From Planctomycetales bacterium 10988 (GTDB lineage Bacteria; Planctomycetota; Planctomycetia; Pirellulales; Pb10988): a DNA stretch of 64,000 nt. Each line of letters opens with the position of its first letter. The first letter of the stretch is position 1. Below the pieces are notes generated by a model. That model made no database searches. It was not told the DNA's origin and saw only the letters and a list, made by a program, of their open reading frames with translations. A program made the position numbers and the translations under genes. Shown here piece by piece: positions 49,359 to 56,391 of this stretch. The stretch lies in the NCBI GenBank assembly GCA_009664345.1, contig CP043547.1, positions 2,694,709-2,758,708 of the forward strand, written 5' to 3'.

Positions 49359-49523
49359 ATGGATGCGGAAGAGTCGGCCACACAACGATCCATTCGCTTG
49401 GCAAAGATCAAACAAGAAATTCAGTCAGGAGATTACGAGACCCCAGATAAATGGAATCTAGCTATTGAGCGTCTTTTAGATCGTTTGCAACAAAATTCCG
49501 AGGAAACTCACCGAACCCGATGA
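49359..49523 (+). CDS. Small FlgM-like (anti-sigma-28-like) protein
   Basis: 54 residues from the ATG at 49359, with AGGAAG about 10 nt ahead; upstream in-frame codons add no family match. The core IRLAKIKQEIQSGDYETPD followed by KWNLAIERLLDRLQQNSEE resembles the C-terminal part of FlgM (R-x-x-I-x-x-x-I-x-x-G-x-Y then an amphipathic helix that binds sigma-28). It is shorter than most FlgM proteins, lacking the disordered N-terminal half. The next gene downstream encodes a protein related to the flagellar export gate FlhA, which strengthens the call. No other flagellar gene is in the window. Confidence 0.5.
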   Translation: MDAEESATQRSIRLAKIKQEIQSGDYETPDKWNLAIERLLDRLQQNSEETHRTR

Positions 49524-49789: not shown

Positions 49790-51214
49790 ATGTCCGCGGA
49801 TTTCTATTCGATGCTCAATCGCTACGTAGGTCGACGAATCTGTTTGACCTTGCATGGCCAGACAAACATCTGGGGAAAAGTTGCCGCCGTTTATTATGAT
49901 GGCCTGCGACTCTCTCAAGCGATCGTCTCCACCGACTTCGATAGCTACACGGGTTTCGACCAACCGATCAGCGCCCGCGGAGAACCTTCTTCGCGAGAAA
50001 CAATGGTCCACGTCAATCAGATTTTGGCCGTTACTTGTCTTGAAGAAGACCTGCCGGAAGTGGAAGAAAGCCCTTCGCAAACGGCATCCAATGCTGAAAA
50101 ACCACTTGTTGTCGAAACCCTGGTCCTTGAAGTCGGCTCGGCCCTGTATGAGTCGCTTTCCAAGGAAAAAGAAGAAAGCTTCGAAGATCAAACGTCCGCT
50201 CTGCGTCAACGGATCGCCTCGGATTTGGGGTTGTTCTTGCCTGATTGGCGTTTGCAAAAGTCGAAACAACTCGAAGAGGATGAATTCGTCGTCAAAGTCC
50301 GAGGGGTTCGCGTCGGAAAAGGGACCGTTTTTCCCAAACGTTTCCTGGCTTTGGCCCGCCGTCCTTTTCTCAAGCCCCTTGCAACCGAATCGGTCGCACC
50401 TTCGTTACTGCCGTATGGCGTCACCGGGTGGTGGATTCGCCGTCCCGAACGGGAGATGGCGGAAGCCCATGGCTATGAAGTCCTTGATATGGTTGGCTTC
50501 TTGGTTTTGCATCTGGAAGAGATTGTGCGGTTGAATGCGGCCCGACTCTTTGGCCGACAGCAGTTGCAAGAACTTCTCGATCAAACCCGAACGATCGCCC
50601 CTTCGTTGGTGGAAGAAGTCATTCCTGAGATGCTTTCCCCGCGAAAATTGCAAAAAGTTCTGCGACTTTTGCTGCGTGAACAAGTCCCTGTTCGCGATAT
50701 GGAAACGATTCTGGAAACGATCAGCGATTGGCAACACGAAGTCCGTGAACCGCGTGAACTGGCGGATAAACTCCGCTTGGCTCTTGCCTCGGTCTTGGTC
50801 GAACGCTGCCAAAATGAACAAAACACTTTAGAAGTGATCCTCCTCGATCCGGCTTTGGAAAGTGCCCTATCTCGGCTGTTGCGAAATGTGAACCGAAGCG
50901 TTGGGATGACCTTGGGACTTACTCCCAAGCAGCGATCCGTTCTGCTTTCCGCTTTGGAAGAAGAGTTGGAAGAGGCCCAAATTCAAGGCCGGTCTCAGGT
51001 TGTGCTGACTTCTGCCCGCTTGCGTTCACCGCTGTGGCAGTTGCTTTCTTCTCGCTTGCCGCATTGCCATGTACTCAGCCACGAGGAAGTCGAGCAATCC
51101 GGGGAGCACATGGAATCCACCGGCATGGTCTTTCACACGGAAGGCTTTCCCGCGGACGAACCGATCGAGAAAGAACCCACCTTTCGAGAATCGACGCCTG
51201 CCCGGAAAAAGTAG
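49790..51214 (+). CDS. Soluble FlhA-C-like (FHIPEP) protein with Sm-like N-terminus
   Basis: 474 residues, no membrane helix. Residues 1-88 resemble an LSm-type barrel (LNRYVGRRICLTLHGQTNIW, then a closing VHVNQILAVTCLE). From 108 to 434 it follows the cytoplasmic domain of FlhA/EscV: LVLEVGSALYESL; RQRIASDLGLFLPDWRL; VVKVRGVRVGKGTVFPKR; TGWWIRR; AHGYEVLDMVGFLVLHLEEIV; LFGRQQLQELLDQ; PSLVEEVIPEMLSPRKLQKV; REQVPVRDMETILETISDW; and VVLTSARLRSPLWQLLSSRL. The eight-helix membrane part of FlhA is absent. FlhA-C normally docks export substrates at the type III gate; this form cannot form a gate and may be a chaperone-docking or regulatory factor. GGGAG lies ahead of the ATG. The TrmH gene begins 49 bp downstream. 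Confidence 0.8.
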   Translation: MSADFYSMLNRYVGRRICLTLHGQTNIWGKVAAVYYDGLRLSQAIVSTDFDSYTGFDQPISARGEPSSRETMVHVNQILAVTCLEEDLPEVEESPSQTASNAEKPLVVETLVLEVGSALYESLSKEKEESFEDQTSALRQRIASDLGLFLPDWRLQKSKQLEEDEFVVKVRGVRVGKGTVFPKRFLALARRPFLKPLATESVAPSLLPYGVTGWWIRRPEREMAEAHGYEVLDMVGFLVLHLEEIVRLNAARLFGRQQLQELLDQTRTIAPSLVEEVIPEMLSPRKLQKVLRLLLREQVPVRDMETILETISDWQHEVREPRELADKLRLALASVLVERCQNEQNTLEVILLDPALESALSRLLRNVNRSVGMTLGLTPKQRSVLLSALEEELEEAQIQGRSQVVLTSARLRSPLWQLLSSRLPHCHVLSHEEVEQSGEHMESTGMVFHTEGFPADEPIEKEPTFRESTPARKK

Positions 51215-52221: not shown

Positions 52222-55200
52222 GTGAAGCCCGACCCCATCGACTCGGACCCGCCCAATCGCGAGGACACGTCAGCAAAGGACGGCGTCTCCAATCATCCCG
52301 AGATCTCTGCCTCGATTGAAGTGATTCGCAAGAAGGCTACCTCTCCCCTTTCGGACCTGGATGAAAAAGAGAAAAAGGACAAGCCGCTAGAGGCAGCCGC
52401 CGGGGCTTCGCCGACCGGGACGCTTTTGCTCCCTGCGATCTATCCCGATATGCAGAAGCCGGATCAAATGCCGGCCGAGCAACTCGCCATCCAGCTACAG
52501 CTAGCCGAAATTCAAAAGCGGCTCCATCAAACGCGGGGGCAATCCCATTCCAAAGCGGTTGAAATCGCGGAAGAGCTGACCCGCTGCGAGCATGAGGTTC
52601 TCGAACTTTCCCACCAAGCGGAACAACTCGATCCACTGCACACTCAGCAACTTGGCTATCCGGTTCTCGATGATTTAACGCAGTGGCGGAATGAGCTGCG
52701 GCGGCTCGACCTGGGCGAAGCGGCGGACGATACCGAACAGGTCTTGATCCGCTTGCTGGAAGATGACTTCGCCCGCTGGAAAGAGCATGTAGAAAAATCG
52801 TATCAGAATTGGAATGCCGACCAATGTTTCTCCGCTCTGATTCAAGCCCGCATCTTCGAATTCGATACGAGTTTGCGATGCCCGCATCATCAATTTTCTC
52901 AAGATGCCGCCCAGGAGCTTCGTGAAGAATTACGGACCCGCCTGAAGGAATTGGTCGAAAAAGCCGCCACATCGCCGCGTCCGATTCCAGAGGAAAAACG
53001 GGCGCAGTGGGTCACGGACCTCTTGGATCGCAGTGATTTGGTGCTGACAAATATCGACGACTTGCCCCCTCAGCAAGCGACAACGCAACTCAACGCGATC
53101 TATGAAGATGTCCAATGGCATTATGATGAAATCGAAACTGAACGCGGCTCCCAGCGACGAAGGTTGCGGCGAAAGCTACGCAGGCTCGATGCCCAATGGC
53201 AAGAGCGAACGCTGCAATGGCGGCTAGAAAAACGATTCGGAACCCTACCCGTAGCGTGGTCCGAACGGATCATCATGGTCCTCATTTGCCTGGTCTTGAT
53301 CATCATTACCGTGCAGTTTTGGGATCTTAGCCCACAAGCCGTCCTCTGGCTCGAAATTGCCGACGCCGCGATCTGCTCGGTCTTGCTGACGGAATTCTTT
53401 GTCAAACTCTCCTTCGCCCCCAAGAAAAGAAGCTGGTTCTGGCGGCATTTCCTGATTGACCTGATCCCTTCGATCCCAGTCGGTTTGTTGGTTGTCTTCT
53501 ATCCGCCAACGACGGAAGCCGCCGATTCACTCCGGGCGACCCGCTTTATTCGCCTGCTGCGACTCTCCACCTTGGCACGTTACGTGCGTATCTTGCGGCC
53601 GTTTCTTCGCATGTTGCGGGCCTTCGGCTTTTTGACAAGAGGAATGGATCGACTCGTCCGGCGTTATGGAAGTCTGCTCAATCGCAATATCATCCTCTAT
53701 CCGACGCGGGAGGAACGTCAACTCGGCAGACTGAGTCAAGCGAGCCTCGCCCCAATGATTCGATCGGTACGAAGTGAACTCGACCAACGCTGGCGGCATT
53801 TGATCCGTTCCAGCGACGGCGAAACAAAACATAAAATCGCGGAAATGCGAATTCATTCGCTGGATGATGATCGCAAGGAAGGACTCACCAAACGCCCTCC
53901 GCAACAGTCGGTGCAATCGCCGCACGCCCGGACGTTGACCGCGGAAGAACTCTTGGATCGCCTGGGAACCACCACGCCGCAGGGGGTTGAAAGCGAGCTG
54001 AATGAAGAACTGATCGATCGACTGGCTCGTTCGATTCGTCTTTTTTCTCGACCGCCACTTAGCTGGATGCCTTTGATCCACGGTCAAATTCCTCGGGTTA
54101 CTTCACAGATGACGAATGCCGAAGTCGTTGCCGCGGCGGCCCGACGCATGAGTTCCACCATGCGGTGGTATCATCATCTCTGGTTTTGGGCAGCCGATCT
54201 CTACGGCACGGTGACCCCGTCGCAGTTCGTGGATCGCATCGGCACGATGTTGGTGAAAGGTTCCTCCAGTCCGGCGATGCGGCTGCTGATGTTTGGCGGC
54301 ATCTATTTAATTGTGCGGGCGGCCCTGATTGTGATCGAATGGCTTTATGCACCCGAGGCCGCGGCCAATGCGATCGTTCAAGGAGGCGAGGCCCTTCGCT
54401 CCCTGACCGAAAACGAAATGCCGCCGCTGTTGACTTGGGTTGATCAATTCGTCAGCCGGTACGTGGGGCCGACGCTGTTACTCTTGGGCGGGGTTTGCCT
54501 CATCTTTTTGGGCTTAGGGATGTGGTTCAAGCACCTCGCCCGCGAAGCCACCGACTTCCTGGAAAGTTCCGCACATGCCCAGTTTTTGGCTCTGACCGAA
54601 AATATTCGCAGCCGCCACCTCTTGCGAGACGCCGGGATTCTCTACCAGCGGGTACTTGGCCCTGAGTGGGAAATTCAAGACGCAGAACAAGAAGTCAACC
54701 ACAAACAAAACCTCTCTCGGTTCATCACCAGAACCCGGCAATCGCTGCTGGGAAGTGAAGTGGCCAAAGATACAAAAACCACTTTTGACGCTACTGAGCG
54801 AATGTTGCTCCTTTACCGTGATGCCCTGGATGGTGCCGTCTTGGCCGATTCGGACACCCGCACCAGTAGCCAACTGCTAGGCAATCCTGCTTTGCAACAG
54901 CTCTTCCATCACAGCGATCGCATCAAGCAAAAAGAATATCGGGCCTTGCGAGCACTCGACCTTCGCCGTCAACAAACGCTGGTGGGTGGCCCGTATTTGT
55001 GGTTCAATTTCATTTGTCAGGCCGTTGCTCAATCGACCGCCCGCGTGATGATCGACTACAACCGCAATGCGATTCCGCTTGAGGAACTTTCCCTCGTAAC
55101 CAGGGCGGAGCGGGCTCGTTATGATCGTTGGCTCGGCACCGACTCGGCCACGACCTCGCAAGTCCCCGGTGAGGAAGACCTCGATAAAGCCGGCGAAGCG

Positions 55201-56391
55201 ATCACGTCCACCTTCACAGTCATGCACTTTCTCGACGCTCACCCTTTGCGGGATTTAGAAATTCAACGCCGTTTCGGGGATGCCGTGTTGTCCCGCATGC
55301 AGCTCGATCGGCAATGGCTGATCCGCCGCGTCTTTGGAACTTTTCCCCTGCATCGCTTGCCGAAAGAGCAACGGGTTCTCAATCTTTATGCCCTCTATGA
55401 GGCGTGGTTCGCTCGCGGCCGGGTGTTGTTGCTTCCTTGCTATGTGATGGTCCTGTTCTTTCAGTCGATGATCAAGTTTCTCGGCTGGCTGTGGGTGTGT
55501 GTCAAAGAATTGATCAATCCGCAACAACGTGTCGATCAGTCGGACGCGGCCGATGCGGACTTCACCACGTGTGTGCGAAAGATTGATCGGATGCGAGGCC
55601 CGATCACGGTCGCCACGATTCGTCTGCGAATGCTCTTCGATCCCGAATACCTCGGCGTTTCGATTCCCGGAATTATTCCTCGGGAGGAACTCAGCAAGCA
55701 AGCCGATTTAGAGAACGACCTGCAAGATGATTTGGACTTTCTTACGCCGGACCCTGATTTGCAAGACACCGCCCATCGCCAACAGCAACGTGCGATTGAC
55801 GATATGGAACGGCTGTCGGACCTGCAAGAAGAAGGACTTTGGAATCGGCTCGCTTCTCGGATGGGCGTTCCCGTGCAACGATTGCAGCAACGACAAACGT
55901 CGCGGGCGGCGGCGGTCGCTTACTTGGGGAACTTTCGCGGAATCCGGTCGCTTCTCTCCGCCGAAGAAATCTTGAAGGAGACCTTTGCGGAAGCTCAGCG
56001 AGATGACCCCATGCCGAATCGTTGGTTTACGGGTTGGCTAATGATGGCCGACTTCCGCCGCTTTTGGAAACAACATGGAAGCGGAGACGCAAACGCTCGG
56101 CTTGCCGCTTGGCGGGCGATTCTTCATGACAAGAACGGCAGTGCCGAAGCCCTCAAGGTCTGGCGGCGTTATGGTCAATCCGCTCAGTCCGAAGGGGAAC
56201 GCCGACTCGCGAATCTCTTGCACCACCCTGGACGCATCAGCGAACAACTCGTCACGCTCCGCACGGTTCAGACGTTAGCCATGCTCGATGTCCTCACTTA
56301 TCGCGAGCATATTTATCGCCTCGGCAATTATGCCGCCGCCGGCGATGTTCCCGGTAAACTCCTCCGCTGGAGCGGAGCCGGGGAAGGCTAG
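52222..56391 (+). CDS. Giant membrane protein with voltage-sensor-like module
   Basis: 1389 residues from a GTG (GAGG just ahead). Residues 1-75 are charged and disordered; about 80-330 is largely helical or coiled coil. Residues 349-467 resemble a voltage-sensor domain: S1 ERIIMVLICLVLIIITVQFW, S2 with acidic LTEFFVKLSFAP, S3 LIDLIPSIPVGLLVV, and S4 RATRFIRLLRLSTLARYVR with arginines at 438, 441, 444, 447, then 453, 456 and 459. Two more helices (about 687-708, 748-773) and a hydrophobic segment (about 1067-1095) follow, separated by long helical soluble parts. No pore loop such as T-x-G-Y-G is visible, nor any known enzyme domain. It ends the rightward set that starts at 49359; converges on the ABC1 kinase gene. 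Confidence 0.7.
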   Translation: MKPDPIDSDPPNREDTSAKDGVSNHPEISASIEVIRKKATSPLSDLDEKEKKDKPLEAAAGASPTGTLLLPAIYPDMQKPDQMPAEQLAIQLQLAEIQKRLHQTRGQSHSKAVEIAEELTRCEHEVLELSHQAEQLDPLHTQQLGYPVLDDLTQWRNELRRLDLGEAADDTEQVLIRLLEDDFARWKEHVEKSYQNWNADQCFSALIQARIFEFDTSLRCPHHQFSQDAAQELREELRTRLKELVEKAATSPRPIPEEKRAQWVTDLLDRSDLVLTNIDDLPPQQATTQLNAIYEDVQWHYDEIETERGSQRRRLRRKLRRLDAQWQERTLQWRLEKRFGTLPVAWSERIIMVLICLVLIIITVQFWDLSPQAVLWLEIADAAICSVLLTEFFVKLSFAPKKRSWFWRHFLIDLIPSIPVGLLVVFYPPTTEAADSLRATRFIRLLRLSTLARYVRILRPFLRMLRAFGFLTRGMDRLVRRYGSLLNRNIILYPTREERQLGRLSQASLAPMIRSVRSELDQRWRHLIRSSDGETKHKIAEMRIHSLDDDRKEGLTKRPPQQSVQSPHARTLTAEELLDRLGTTTPQGVESELNEELIDRLARSIRLFSRPPLSWMPLIHGQIPRVTSQMTNAEVVAAAARRMSSTMRWYHHLWFWAADLYGTVTPSQFVDRIGTMLVKGSSSPAMRLLMFGGIYLIVRAALIVIEWLYAPEAAANAIVQGGEALRSLTENEMPPLLTWVDQFVSRYVGPTLLLLGGVCLIFLGLGMWFKHLAREATDFLESSAHAQFLALTENIRSRHLLRDAGILYQRVLGPEWEIQDAEQEVNHKQNLSRFITRTRQSLLGSEVAKDTKTTFDATERMLLLYRDALDGAVLADSDTRTSSQLLGNPALQQLFHHSDRIKQKEYRALRALDLRRQQTLVGGPYLWFNFICQAVAQSTARVMIDYNRNAIPLEELSLVTRAERARYDRWLGTDSATTSQVPGEEDLDKAGEAITSTFTVMHFLDAHPLRDLEIQRRFGDAVLSRMQLDRQWLIRRVFGTFPLHRLPKEQRVLNLYALYEAWFARGRVLLLPCYVMVLFFQSMIKFLGWLWVCVKELINPQQRVDQSDAADADFTTCVRKIDRMRGPITVATIRLRMLFDPEYLGVSIPGIIPREELSKQADLENDLQDDLDFLTPDPDLQDTAHRQQQRAIDDMERLSDLQEEGLWNRLASRMGVPVQRLQQRQTSRAAAVAYLGNFRGIRSLLSAEEILKETFAEAQRDDPMPNRWFTGWLMMADFRRFWKQHGSGDANARLAAWRAILHDKNGSAEALKVWRRYGQSAQSEGERRLANLLHHPGRISEQLVTLRTVQTLAMLDVLTYREHIYRLGNYAAAGDVPGKLLRWSGAGEG

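What the first reader, a model, noticed from the sequence alone, without database searches (positions are those of the whole stretch)
49790..51214. A membrane-less FlhA cytoplasmic-domain protein fused to an Sm-like N-terminus
The C-terminal 330 residues follow the cytoplasmic half of the flagellar/type III export gate protein FlhA, through to the last VLxSxxLRxxLxxLL segment. The eight-helix gate domain is missing; in its place is an 88-residue barrel-like domain resembling LSm folds. FlhA-C normally forms a nonameric docking ring for export chaperones, so a free ring-forming docking domain with an RNA-binding-like partner would be a new use of the module. The family similarity is visible in the sequence; the Sm-like call and the function are inference.
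Basis: partly seen in the sequence, partly recalled or inferred. Interest (0 to 1): 0.75.

Follow-up and report, generated by a model that had tools for sequence, protein, structure and literature searches.

The report
Sm-fold domain fused to soluble FlhA-C
Some planctomycete bacteria make a free-floating copy of the docking half of the flagellar export gate protein FlhA, with an Sm-type barrel where the membrane half should be, and one of them keeps it although much of its flagellum seems to be gone.

Summary
Window 49790-51214 (+) encodes an intact 474-aa protein. Residues 92-437 match FHIPEP/FlhA positions 314-655 (E 6.7e-73), without the membrane half. Residues 1-90 are predicted to have an Sm/LSm fold, with a sequence bridge to Pfam LSM through a stand-alone relative. 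The same fusion occurs in at least 16 of 396 Pirellulales genomes, six genera, including Blastopirellula marina. All also have full-length FlhA (one only as a contig-end fragment). Both domains are under purifying selection in the two genera tested. In 15 of 17 other members the chaperone-binding triad D456/F459/T490 is intact; in the window it is A/Y/L. The window's genome keeps an export gate, FliA and FlgM, but gave no flagellin, FliS or rod/hook match, and its FlhB lacks the switch domain. Best reading: a soluble FlhA docking module, oligomerised by the Sm domain, that binds export chaperones in flagellated relatives and is drifting to another role here. RNA binding is untested and somewhat disfavoured.

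The parts
49790..51214 (+). Whole gene: Sm-fold domain, variable linker, FlhA cytoplasmic domain, short tail (474 aa)
49790..50059 (+). N-terminal Sm/LSm-fold domain, residues 1-90 (helix 2-10, strands 16-21, 25-34, 38-47, 71-74, 78-83; acid-rich loop 48-68)
   Evidence: AlphaFold2 model of residues 1-93, best of five, pLDDT 72.5; Foldseek and VIA hits to Sm/LSm/Hfq; profile bridge to PF01423 LSM
50060..50113 (+). Linker, residues 91-108, little conserved between members
   Evidence: alignments; higher dN/dS than the domains in 9 of 9 pairs except that it equals the N-domain within error in one
50114..51106 (+). FlhA cytoplasmic domain, residues 109-439
   Evidence: PF00771 314-655 (match starts at residue 92); PDB sequence hits; VIA Z 24.1 to FlhA-C 6ch1, 322 residues, rmsd 7.2
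50396..50416 (+). First part of the chaperone-binding dimple: A203 and Y209 stand where Salmonella FlhA has D456 and F459, with a 3-residue insertion between them
   Evidence: role of these residues from passages of PMC8166844
50507..50509 (+). L240, at the position of T490 of the dimple
51107..51211 (+). C-terminal tail, residues 440-474, low model confidence, ends PARKK; most relatives end in P-R-(R/Q)-P-R
   Evidence: alignments; pLDDT under 50
49359..49523 (+). 54-aa ORF resembling the C-terminal half of FlgM, 266 bp upstream on the same strand; membership of the unit is uncertain
   Evidence: PF04316 E 0.0033, 18 bits, under the cut-off of 25; second-best FlgM place in the genome; shared pattern with the genome's own FlgM by eye; not found in the relatives' loci

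Best explanation
It is a soluble paralogue of the FlhA cytoplasmic docking domain in which an Sm-fold domain stands in the place of the membrane gate. Shown: the two-domain architecture, its conservation, and intact chaperone-dimple residues in most relatives. Inferred: the Sm domain makes the protein an oligomer in the cytosol, so that it offers several FlhA-type docking sites away from the membrane; there it binds chaperone-substrate complexes of late flagellar proteins (FliS-flagellin and the like) and acts as a buffer or competitor that tunes what reaches the true gate. In the window's lineage, which seems to have lost filament, rod and hook genes and FliS while keeping the gate, the dimple has decayed and the protein is kept for another task, possibly with the remaining gate or the FliA/FlgM circuit.
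For: FHIPEP match restricted to the cytoplasmic part. Sm fold for the N-domain and LSM bridge. At least 16 of 396 genomes of the order carry the fusion and all 16 also have full-length FlhA, one (G591) only as a fragment at a contig end. D456/F459/T490 kept in 15 of 17 distinct members other than the window, the residues that bind FlgN, FliS and FliT in Salmonella (passages of PMC8166844). FliS present in 15 of 15 fusion holders other than the window's genome and absent from the window's genome, the one with A/Y/L in the triad. dN/dS 0.03-0.17 in the N-domain and 0.03-0.10 in the FlhA part over 9 pairs within two genera.
Against: No biochemical evidence; ring or oligomer formation is not testable here. 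Triad and FliS do not track perfectly: G591 (E/Y/V) and G496 (E/S/G) have FliS, and FliS is also in 17 of 18 tested genomes without a known fusion, so its presence says little. The linker W354 position holds W in 14 of 17 other members, but in 0 of 59 full-length planctomycete FlhA rows and not in the window, so it is no proof of a kept switch. No conserved flagellar neighbours were seen by eye; the shared upstream element looks sigma70-like, not flagellar. The tree does not group the window's FlhA part with the other fusions: 0 of 200 bootstrap trees have the fusions as one group, though one clade is not rejected (p-AU 0.217). Only the best of five models is fair (72.5 against 41.6-55.5 for the N-domain; 67.2 against 41.1-54.5 whole).
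Confidence: 0.4

Rival explanations
1. The FlhA-C module has been taken over for a task outside protein export, as a protein-interaction scaffold with an Sm-fold oligomeriser.
For: Kept in a genome without a recognised flagellin, FliS or rod/hook protein; triad changed in 3 of 18 distinct members; no common flagellar neighbour seen and a sigma70-like upstream element.
Against: Triad intact in 15 of 18 distinct members; all known holders still have full-length FlhA, though so do nearly all genomes of the order; the window's genome still has FliO, FliP, FliQ, FliR, FlhB and FlhA genes.
Confidence: 0.25
2. RNA-coupled export control: the Sm domain binds RNA, for example flagellin mRNA or a small RNA, and the FlhA-C part senses chaperone load, so that translation follows export, by analogy with CsrA-FliW.
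For: Sm/LSm/Hfq fold; invariant residues L9, R11, R15, G23, G29, D37, L41, E70 in the N-domain and its purifying selection; a precedent for RNA control tied to flagellin in Campylobacter (abstract and outline of PMC4894983).
Against: N-domain with more D/E than K/R in 11 of 11 members; no canonical Sm2 R-G motif (motif recalled); kept where no flagellin was found; Sm folds are also used for protein contacts (recalled).
Confidence: 0.15
3. It is an extra subunit that joins the FlhA-C ring at the membrane and modifies it (mixed ring).
For: Same fold and partly conserved FlhA-C surface; FlhA co-occurs in all known holders.
Against: A bulky N-domain stands where the membrane anchor and linker would be; long branches and identity of 34% at most to the full-length rows in the tree; ring-contact residues were not tested beyond the linker sites.
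Confidence: 0.15
4. Gene fragment or artefact: a broken FlhA copy that happens to be open.
For: Long branch of the window's copy (2.18) and unusual residue make-up.
Against: Same architecture over full length in at least 15 other genomes; dN/dS far below 1 in both domains of relatives; intact 474-codon frame.
Confidence: 0.03

Closest known systems
FlhA cytoplasmic domain (FlhA-C; PF00771 C-terminal half; PDB 3a5i, 6ch1, 7amy)
   Same: Sequence match over profile 314-655 and predicted fold, VIA Z 24.1 over 322 residues; chaperone-dimple residues in most members.
   Different: No membrane domain; Sm-fold N-domain instead; separate gene from the full-length FlhA of the same genome; dimple changed in the window copy.
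SctV/YscV cytoplasmic domain of injectisomes
   Same: Same fold, VIA Z up to 22.
   Different: Sequence scores lower than against FlhA (TIGR01399 146.8 bits against TIGR01398 236.1 bits).
FlhX and similar soluble homologues of the FlhB cytoplasmic domain
   Same: Principle: a free copy of the cytosolic part of an export-gate protein beside the full-length one (function recalled; only passages naming FlhX as a secretion-system protein were seen, PMC9321776).
   Different: FlhB, not FlhA; no Sm-fold domain that I know of (recalled).
Sm/LSm/SmAP/Hfq proteins (PF01423)
   Same: Predicted helix-plus-five-strand barrel; Foldseek best E 5.3e-4, VIA Z 10.4.
   Different: No direct PF01423 match for the fusion's N-domain; no Sm2 R-G motif; acidic loop of 16-25 residues; covalently joined to FlhA-C.
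Small stand-alone LSm-like proteins of planctomycetes outside Pirellulales (L114-L120)
   Same: Found with the N-domain profile, E 3.5e-9 to 8e-4, in 7 of 392 genomes; one of 7 passes the Pfam LSM cut-off, 31.1 against 23.4 bits.
   Different: 91-98 residues, not fused; no flagellar neighbour seen by eye.

Membership tests
FlhA (FHIPEP, full-length export gate protein) | C-terminal cytoplasmic domain | tested here: met
   PF00771 314-655, 246.7 bits against cut-off 29.1; VIA Z 24.1
FlhA (FHIPEP, full-length export gate protein) | N-terminal membrane gate domain (profile 1 to about 310) | tested here: not met
   Match starts at profile 314; residues 1-90 are an Sm-fold domain; TIGR01398 236 bits against cut-off 772
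FlhA (FHIPEP, full-length export gate protein) | Chaperone-binding dimple D456, F459, T490 | tested here: not met
   Window A203, Y209, L240; intact in 15 of 17 distinct other members
FlhA (FHIPEP, full-length export gate protein) | Nonameric ring of the cytoplasmic domain | not testable with these tools
   No oligomer prediction or biochemistry
Sm/LSm | Helix plus five-stranded Sm barrel | tested here: met
   Predicted only; best of five models, pLDDT 72.5
Sm/LSm | Sequence match to the LSM family over its cut-off | tested here: inconclusive
   No match for 11 of 11 fusion N-domains nor in PDB (best E 0.12 to an unrelated enzyme, SmG E 1); a stand-alone relative passes the cut-off
Sm/LSm | Sm2 motif R-G-(N/D) | tested here: not met
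   Read by eye in the alignment; motif recalled
Sm/LSm | RNA binding and six- or seven-fold ring | not testable with these tools
   Only composition was examined
FlgM (for ORF 49359-49523) | PF04316 over its cut-off | tested here: not met
   18 bits against 25; in the whole-genome search at E up to 1, 11 of 14 control genomes also gave matches, only 3 over the cut-off

The most novel reading that the evidence does not exclude
A cytosolic Sm-ring/FlhA-C hub that links RNA or translation to the type III export gate, present in flagellated Pirellulales and kept by a planctomycete that has stripped its flagellar system down to an export gate with FliA and FlgM, where it serves a non-flagellar secretion or signalling device.
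Probability: 0.1. Interest if true: 0.88.

Novelty: new variant of a known kind. Interest (0 to 1): 0.62.

Why it matters
FlhA-C is known as the docking ring at the bottom of a membrane gate. A conserved free copy joined to an Sm-fold domain means that the docking function can be separated from the gate, and that an RNA-type fold has been recruited to the export pathway. It gives a soluble, natural FlhA-C on which chaperone docking and oligomer state can be measured, and a natural contrast between relatives with an intact triad and the window's lineage, where triad, FliS and flagellin are all missing.

Tried and rejected
Frameshifted or broken full-length FlhA: rejected, see observation check. 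SctV rather than FlhA origin: FlhA models score higher.

Direct sequence match of the N-domain to LSM: not found in Pfam or PDB (best E 0.12, a GMP synthase); only the bridge and the predicted fold carry the claim. DUF6897 (7 of 11 members, best E 0.0019) and RimP C-terminal domain (5 of 11, best 0.015) are weak leads under cut-off.

Stand-alone copies of the N-domain inside the same genomes: in 11 genomes with the fusion and 5 without, the only matches under E 0.1 were the fusions; two more lay at E 0.25 and 0.51. Conserved gene neighbourhood: none across genera; in 4 of 5 Blastopirellula/g4 loci listed a PIN/PhoH-like ORF lies beside it (named by eye). Sigma28 or sigma54 promoter patterns: no hit with the patterns used; the alignment shows TTGCCG-18-TACAAT-like hexamers in Blastopirellula and g4, read by eye. 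FlgM-like ORF as a conserved partner: not found in the other loci.

One origin of the fusion: not proven. In the tree of 9 fusions and 21 full-length rows the window copy falls beside a full-length row (94/84), 0 of 200 bootstrap trees unite the fusions, and the AU test does not reject one clade (p 0.217); long branches are involved (a quick tree of 62 rows also needs 2 changes). The shared N-domain is the argument for one origin.

Rows dropped: 16 rows were left out of the 78-row alignment for the quick tree, and the careful tree used 30 rows; the very long L081 was left out there. L038 and L076 are the same B. marina gene and are counted once. G623 has an unresolved FlhA fragment match (profile 363-655, 339-aa frame) that I did not count. 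Genomes with two matches were not all re-examined, so 16 of 396 is a lower bound.

Not searched in the window's genome: FliF, FliG, FliM, FliI, FliH, MotA/B, FliD, FlgN, FliT. The genome is 95.6% complete by the tool's figure and at least one stretch that I fetched reads N, so absences are absences from what is held.

Full report
What is there. The ORF at 49790-51214 (+) is 474 codons, open from ATG to stop. Pfam gives FHIPEP at 246.7 bits on residues 92-437, profile 314-655 of 657. FlhA is the best NCBIfam model (236 bits) ahead of SctV/HrcV (147 bits). phmmer finds Salmonella FlhA-C at E 9.4e-39. A whole-genome search with FHIPEP finds two places, this one and a full-length FlhA of 796 bits two megabases away. 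The genome is one contig of 6.65 Mb.

The N-terminal domain. An AlphaFold2 model of residues 1-93 from a four-row alignment has one helix and five strands in Sm order, pLDDT 72.5 for the best of five models; the other four lie at 41.6-55.5. The full model shows the same elements (pLDDT 67.2, others 41.1-54.5). Foldseek against PDB lists 50 rows, all from Sm, LSm, SmAP, Edc3, Gemin or spliceosome entries; the best E-value is 5.3e-4 and only one match is under 0.001. VIA lists Sm, LSm, SmAP and Hfq entries, best Z 10.4 with 69 residues at 2.5 A. In the full model both parts appear: FlhA-C at Z 24.1 over 322 residues (rmsd 7.2) and Sm proteins at Z 10.5. By sequence the N-domain alone reaches neither PF01423 nor a significant PDB hit. 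But its profile finds small stand-alone proteins in 7 of 392 planctomycete genomes outside the order (E 3.5e-9 to 8e-4), and one of them passes the LSM cut-off (31.1 against 23.4 bits; three others match LSM below the cut-off and three do not match it).

Distribution. A profile of 13 fusions was run on 396 genomes of the order: 14 give full-length matches to it, namely the window's genome, four of genus g2, eight of g4 and one of g329. FHIPEP run on 52 chosen genomes adds one of g338 and one of g288, both with the same N-domain. That makes at least 16 of 396, in two families and six genera. g2 is Blastopirellula: the contig of G381 and its gene equal those of B. marina DSM 3645. All 16 also have FlhA; in G591 only a fragment at a contig end is seen. 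A 294-genome sample of the phylum showed full-length matches only within the order in the listed rows, but that list was cut.

Selection and upstream region. Within Blastopirellula and g4, nine pairs give dN/dS 0.03-0.17 for the N-domain, 0.03-0.10 for the FlhA part and 0.06-0.86 for the linker; some dS values exceed 1, so the figures are rough, and the window copy is not in this test. In these genera the start is preceded by sigma70-like hexamers, TTGCCG-18-TACAAT and variants, read by eye.

Function sites. In Salmonella, D456, F459 and T490 form the hydrophobic dimple that binds FlgN, FliS and FliT complexes (passages of PMC8166844). They are intact in 15 of 17 distinct members other than the window, E/Y/V in G591, E/S/G in G496, and A/Y/L with a 3-residue insertion in the window. 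The window genome's own full-length FlhA has E/F/T. The position of the linker tryptophan W354 holds W in 14 of 17 other members but in 0 of 59 full-length planctomycete FlhA rows, so this may be convergence or chance.

The window's organism. FliS is found in 32 of 34 genomes tested, including 15 of 15 other fusion holders, but not in the window's genome nor in G504, which has no known fusion. The Flagellin_N family has no match in the window's genome (only this genome was searched, and 4 of 14 control genomes rang, as expected). The rod/hook/FlgK family PF06429 has 0 matches there against 5 each in G376, G504 and G619. Yet FliP is present at 245.7 bits in a cluster with FliN-like, FliO, FliQ, FliR and FlhB, and FlhA lies with FlhF, a FlhG-like ATPase and FliA; a FlgM over its cut-off is elsewhere. 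FlhB is 283 aa and matches only profile 5-242 of 335; no NPTH stretch is seen in the three forward frames downstream. So the genome looks like one that kept the export gate and regulators while losing the axial structure. FliF, FliG, FliI and others were not searched.

Mechanism. The parts suggest a soluble docking module: FlhA-C to bind chaperone-substrate complexes, Sm domain to make it an oligomer. Sm rings have six or seven subunits and FlhA-C rings nine (ring sizes recalled, apart from the nonameric FlhA-C and SctV-C entries), so the Sm ring would not simply template the FlhA ring. In flagellated relatives a buffer or competitor for late substrates is the simplest use. In the window lineage the docking site has changed together with the loss of FliS and flagellin, yet the gene is intact, which points to another role. 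RNA binding cannot be excluded but is weakened by acidity and the missing Sm2 motif. The 54-aa FlgM-like ORF 266 bp upstream hints at a link to the FliA/FlgM circuit in this lineage only.

Print. Searches of the open library found no paper that joins FlhA with an LSm domain (0 papers), FlhA with planctomycetes and cytoplasmic domain, or B. marina with flagellar and FlhA. A search for FlhA with planctomycete gave 15 listings, none about such a protein by title or by the start of its abstract. Searches gave listings only, with passages read from PMC3459982. Subscription papers and most preprints are not covered.

Noticed in passing
Own genome, loci L035, L083, L138: Export-gate genes FliO, FliP, FliQ, FliR, FlhA and a FlhB without its cytoplasmic switch domain, with FlhF, FliA and FlgM, in a genome without a match for flagellin, FliS or rod/hook proteins: a gate that seems to have outlived its flagellum.
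   Followed up: partly
window 49359-49523 (+): 54-aa ORF like the C-terminal half of FlgM, under the family cut-off, upstream of the fusion gene.
   Followed up: partly
L114-L120: A family of small stand-alone LSm-like proteins in planctomycetes outside Pirellulales; in L117 and L118 the neighbouring ORF shows a HELGHF motif as in site-2 proteases (by eye).
   Followed up: partly
G295, G299, G328, G355, G357, G382, G386, G437, G513 (handles): FlhA genes in one open frame whose FHIPEP match skips about profile 405-450, the part that should hold D456/F459; these lineages may have FlhA without the chaperone dimple.
   Followed up: no
L097 (G504): A second full-length FlhA with N/R/D in the triad positions, in a genome with two FlhA and two FliP genes and no FliS match.
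   Followed up: no
window 52222-56391 (+): 1389-aa protein with an ion-channel domain (PF00520, 30.5 bits) in a long frame without other family matches over cut-off.
   Followed up: no
L034, L076 and the other relatives in A3, last residues: Most relatives of the fusion end in P-R-(R/Q)-P-R, a conserved tail after an unconserved stretch.
   Followed up: no
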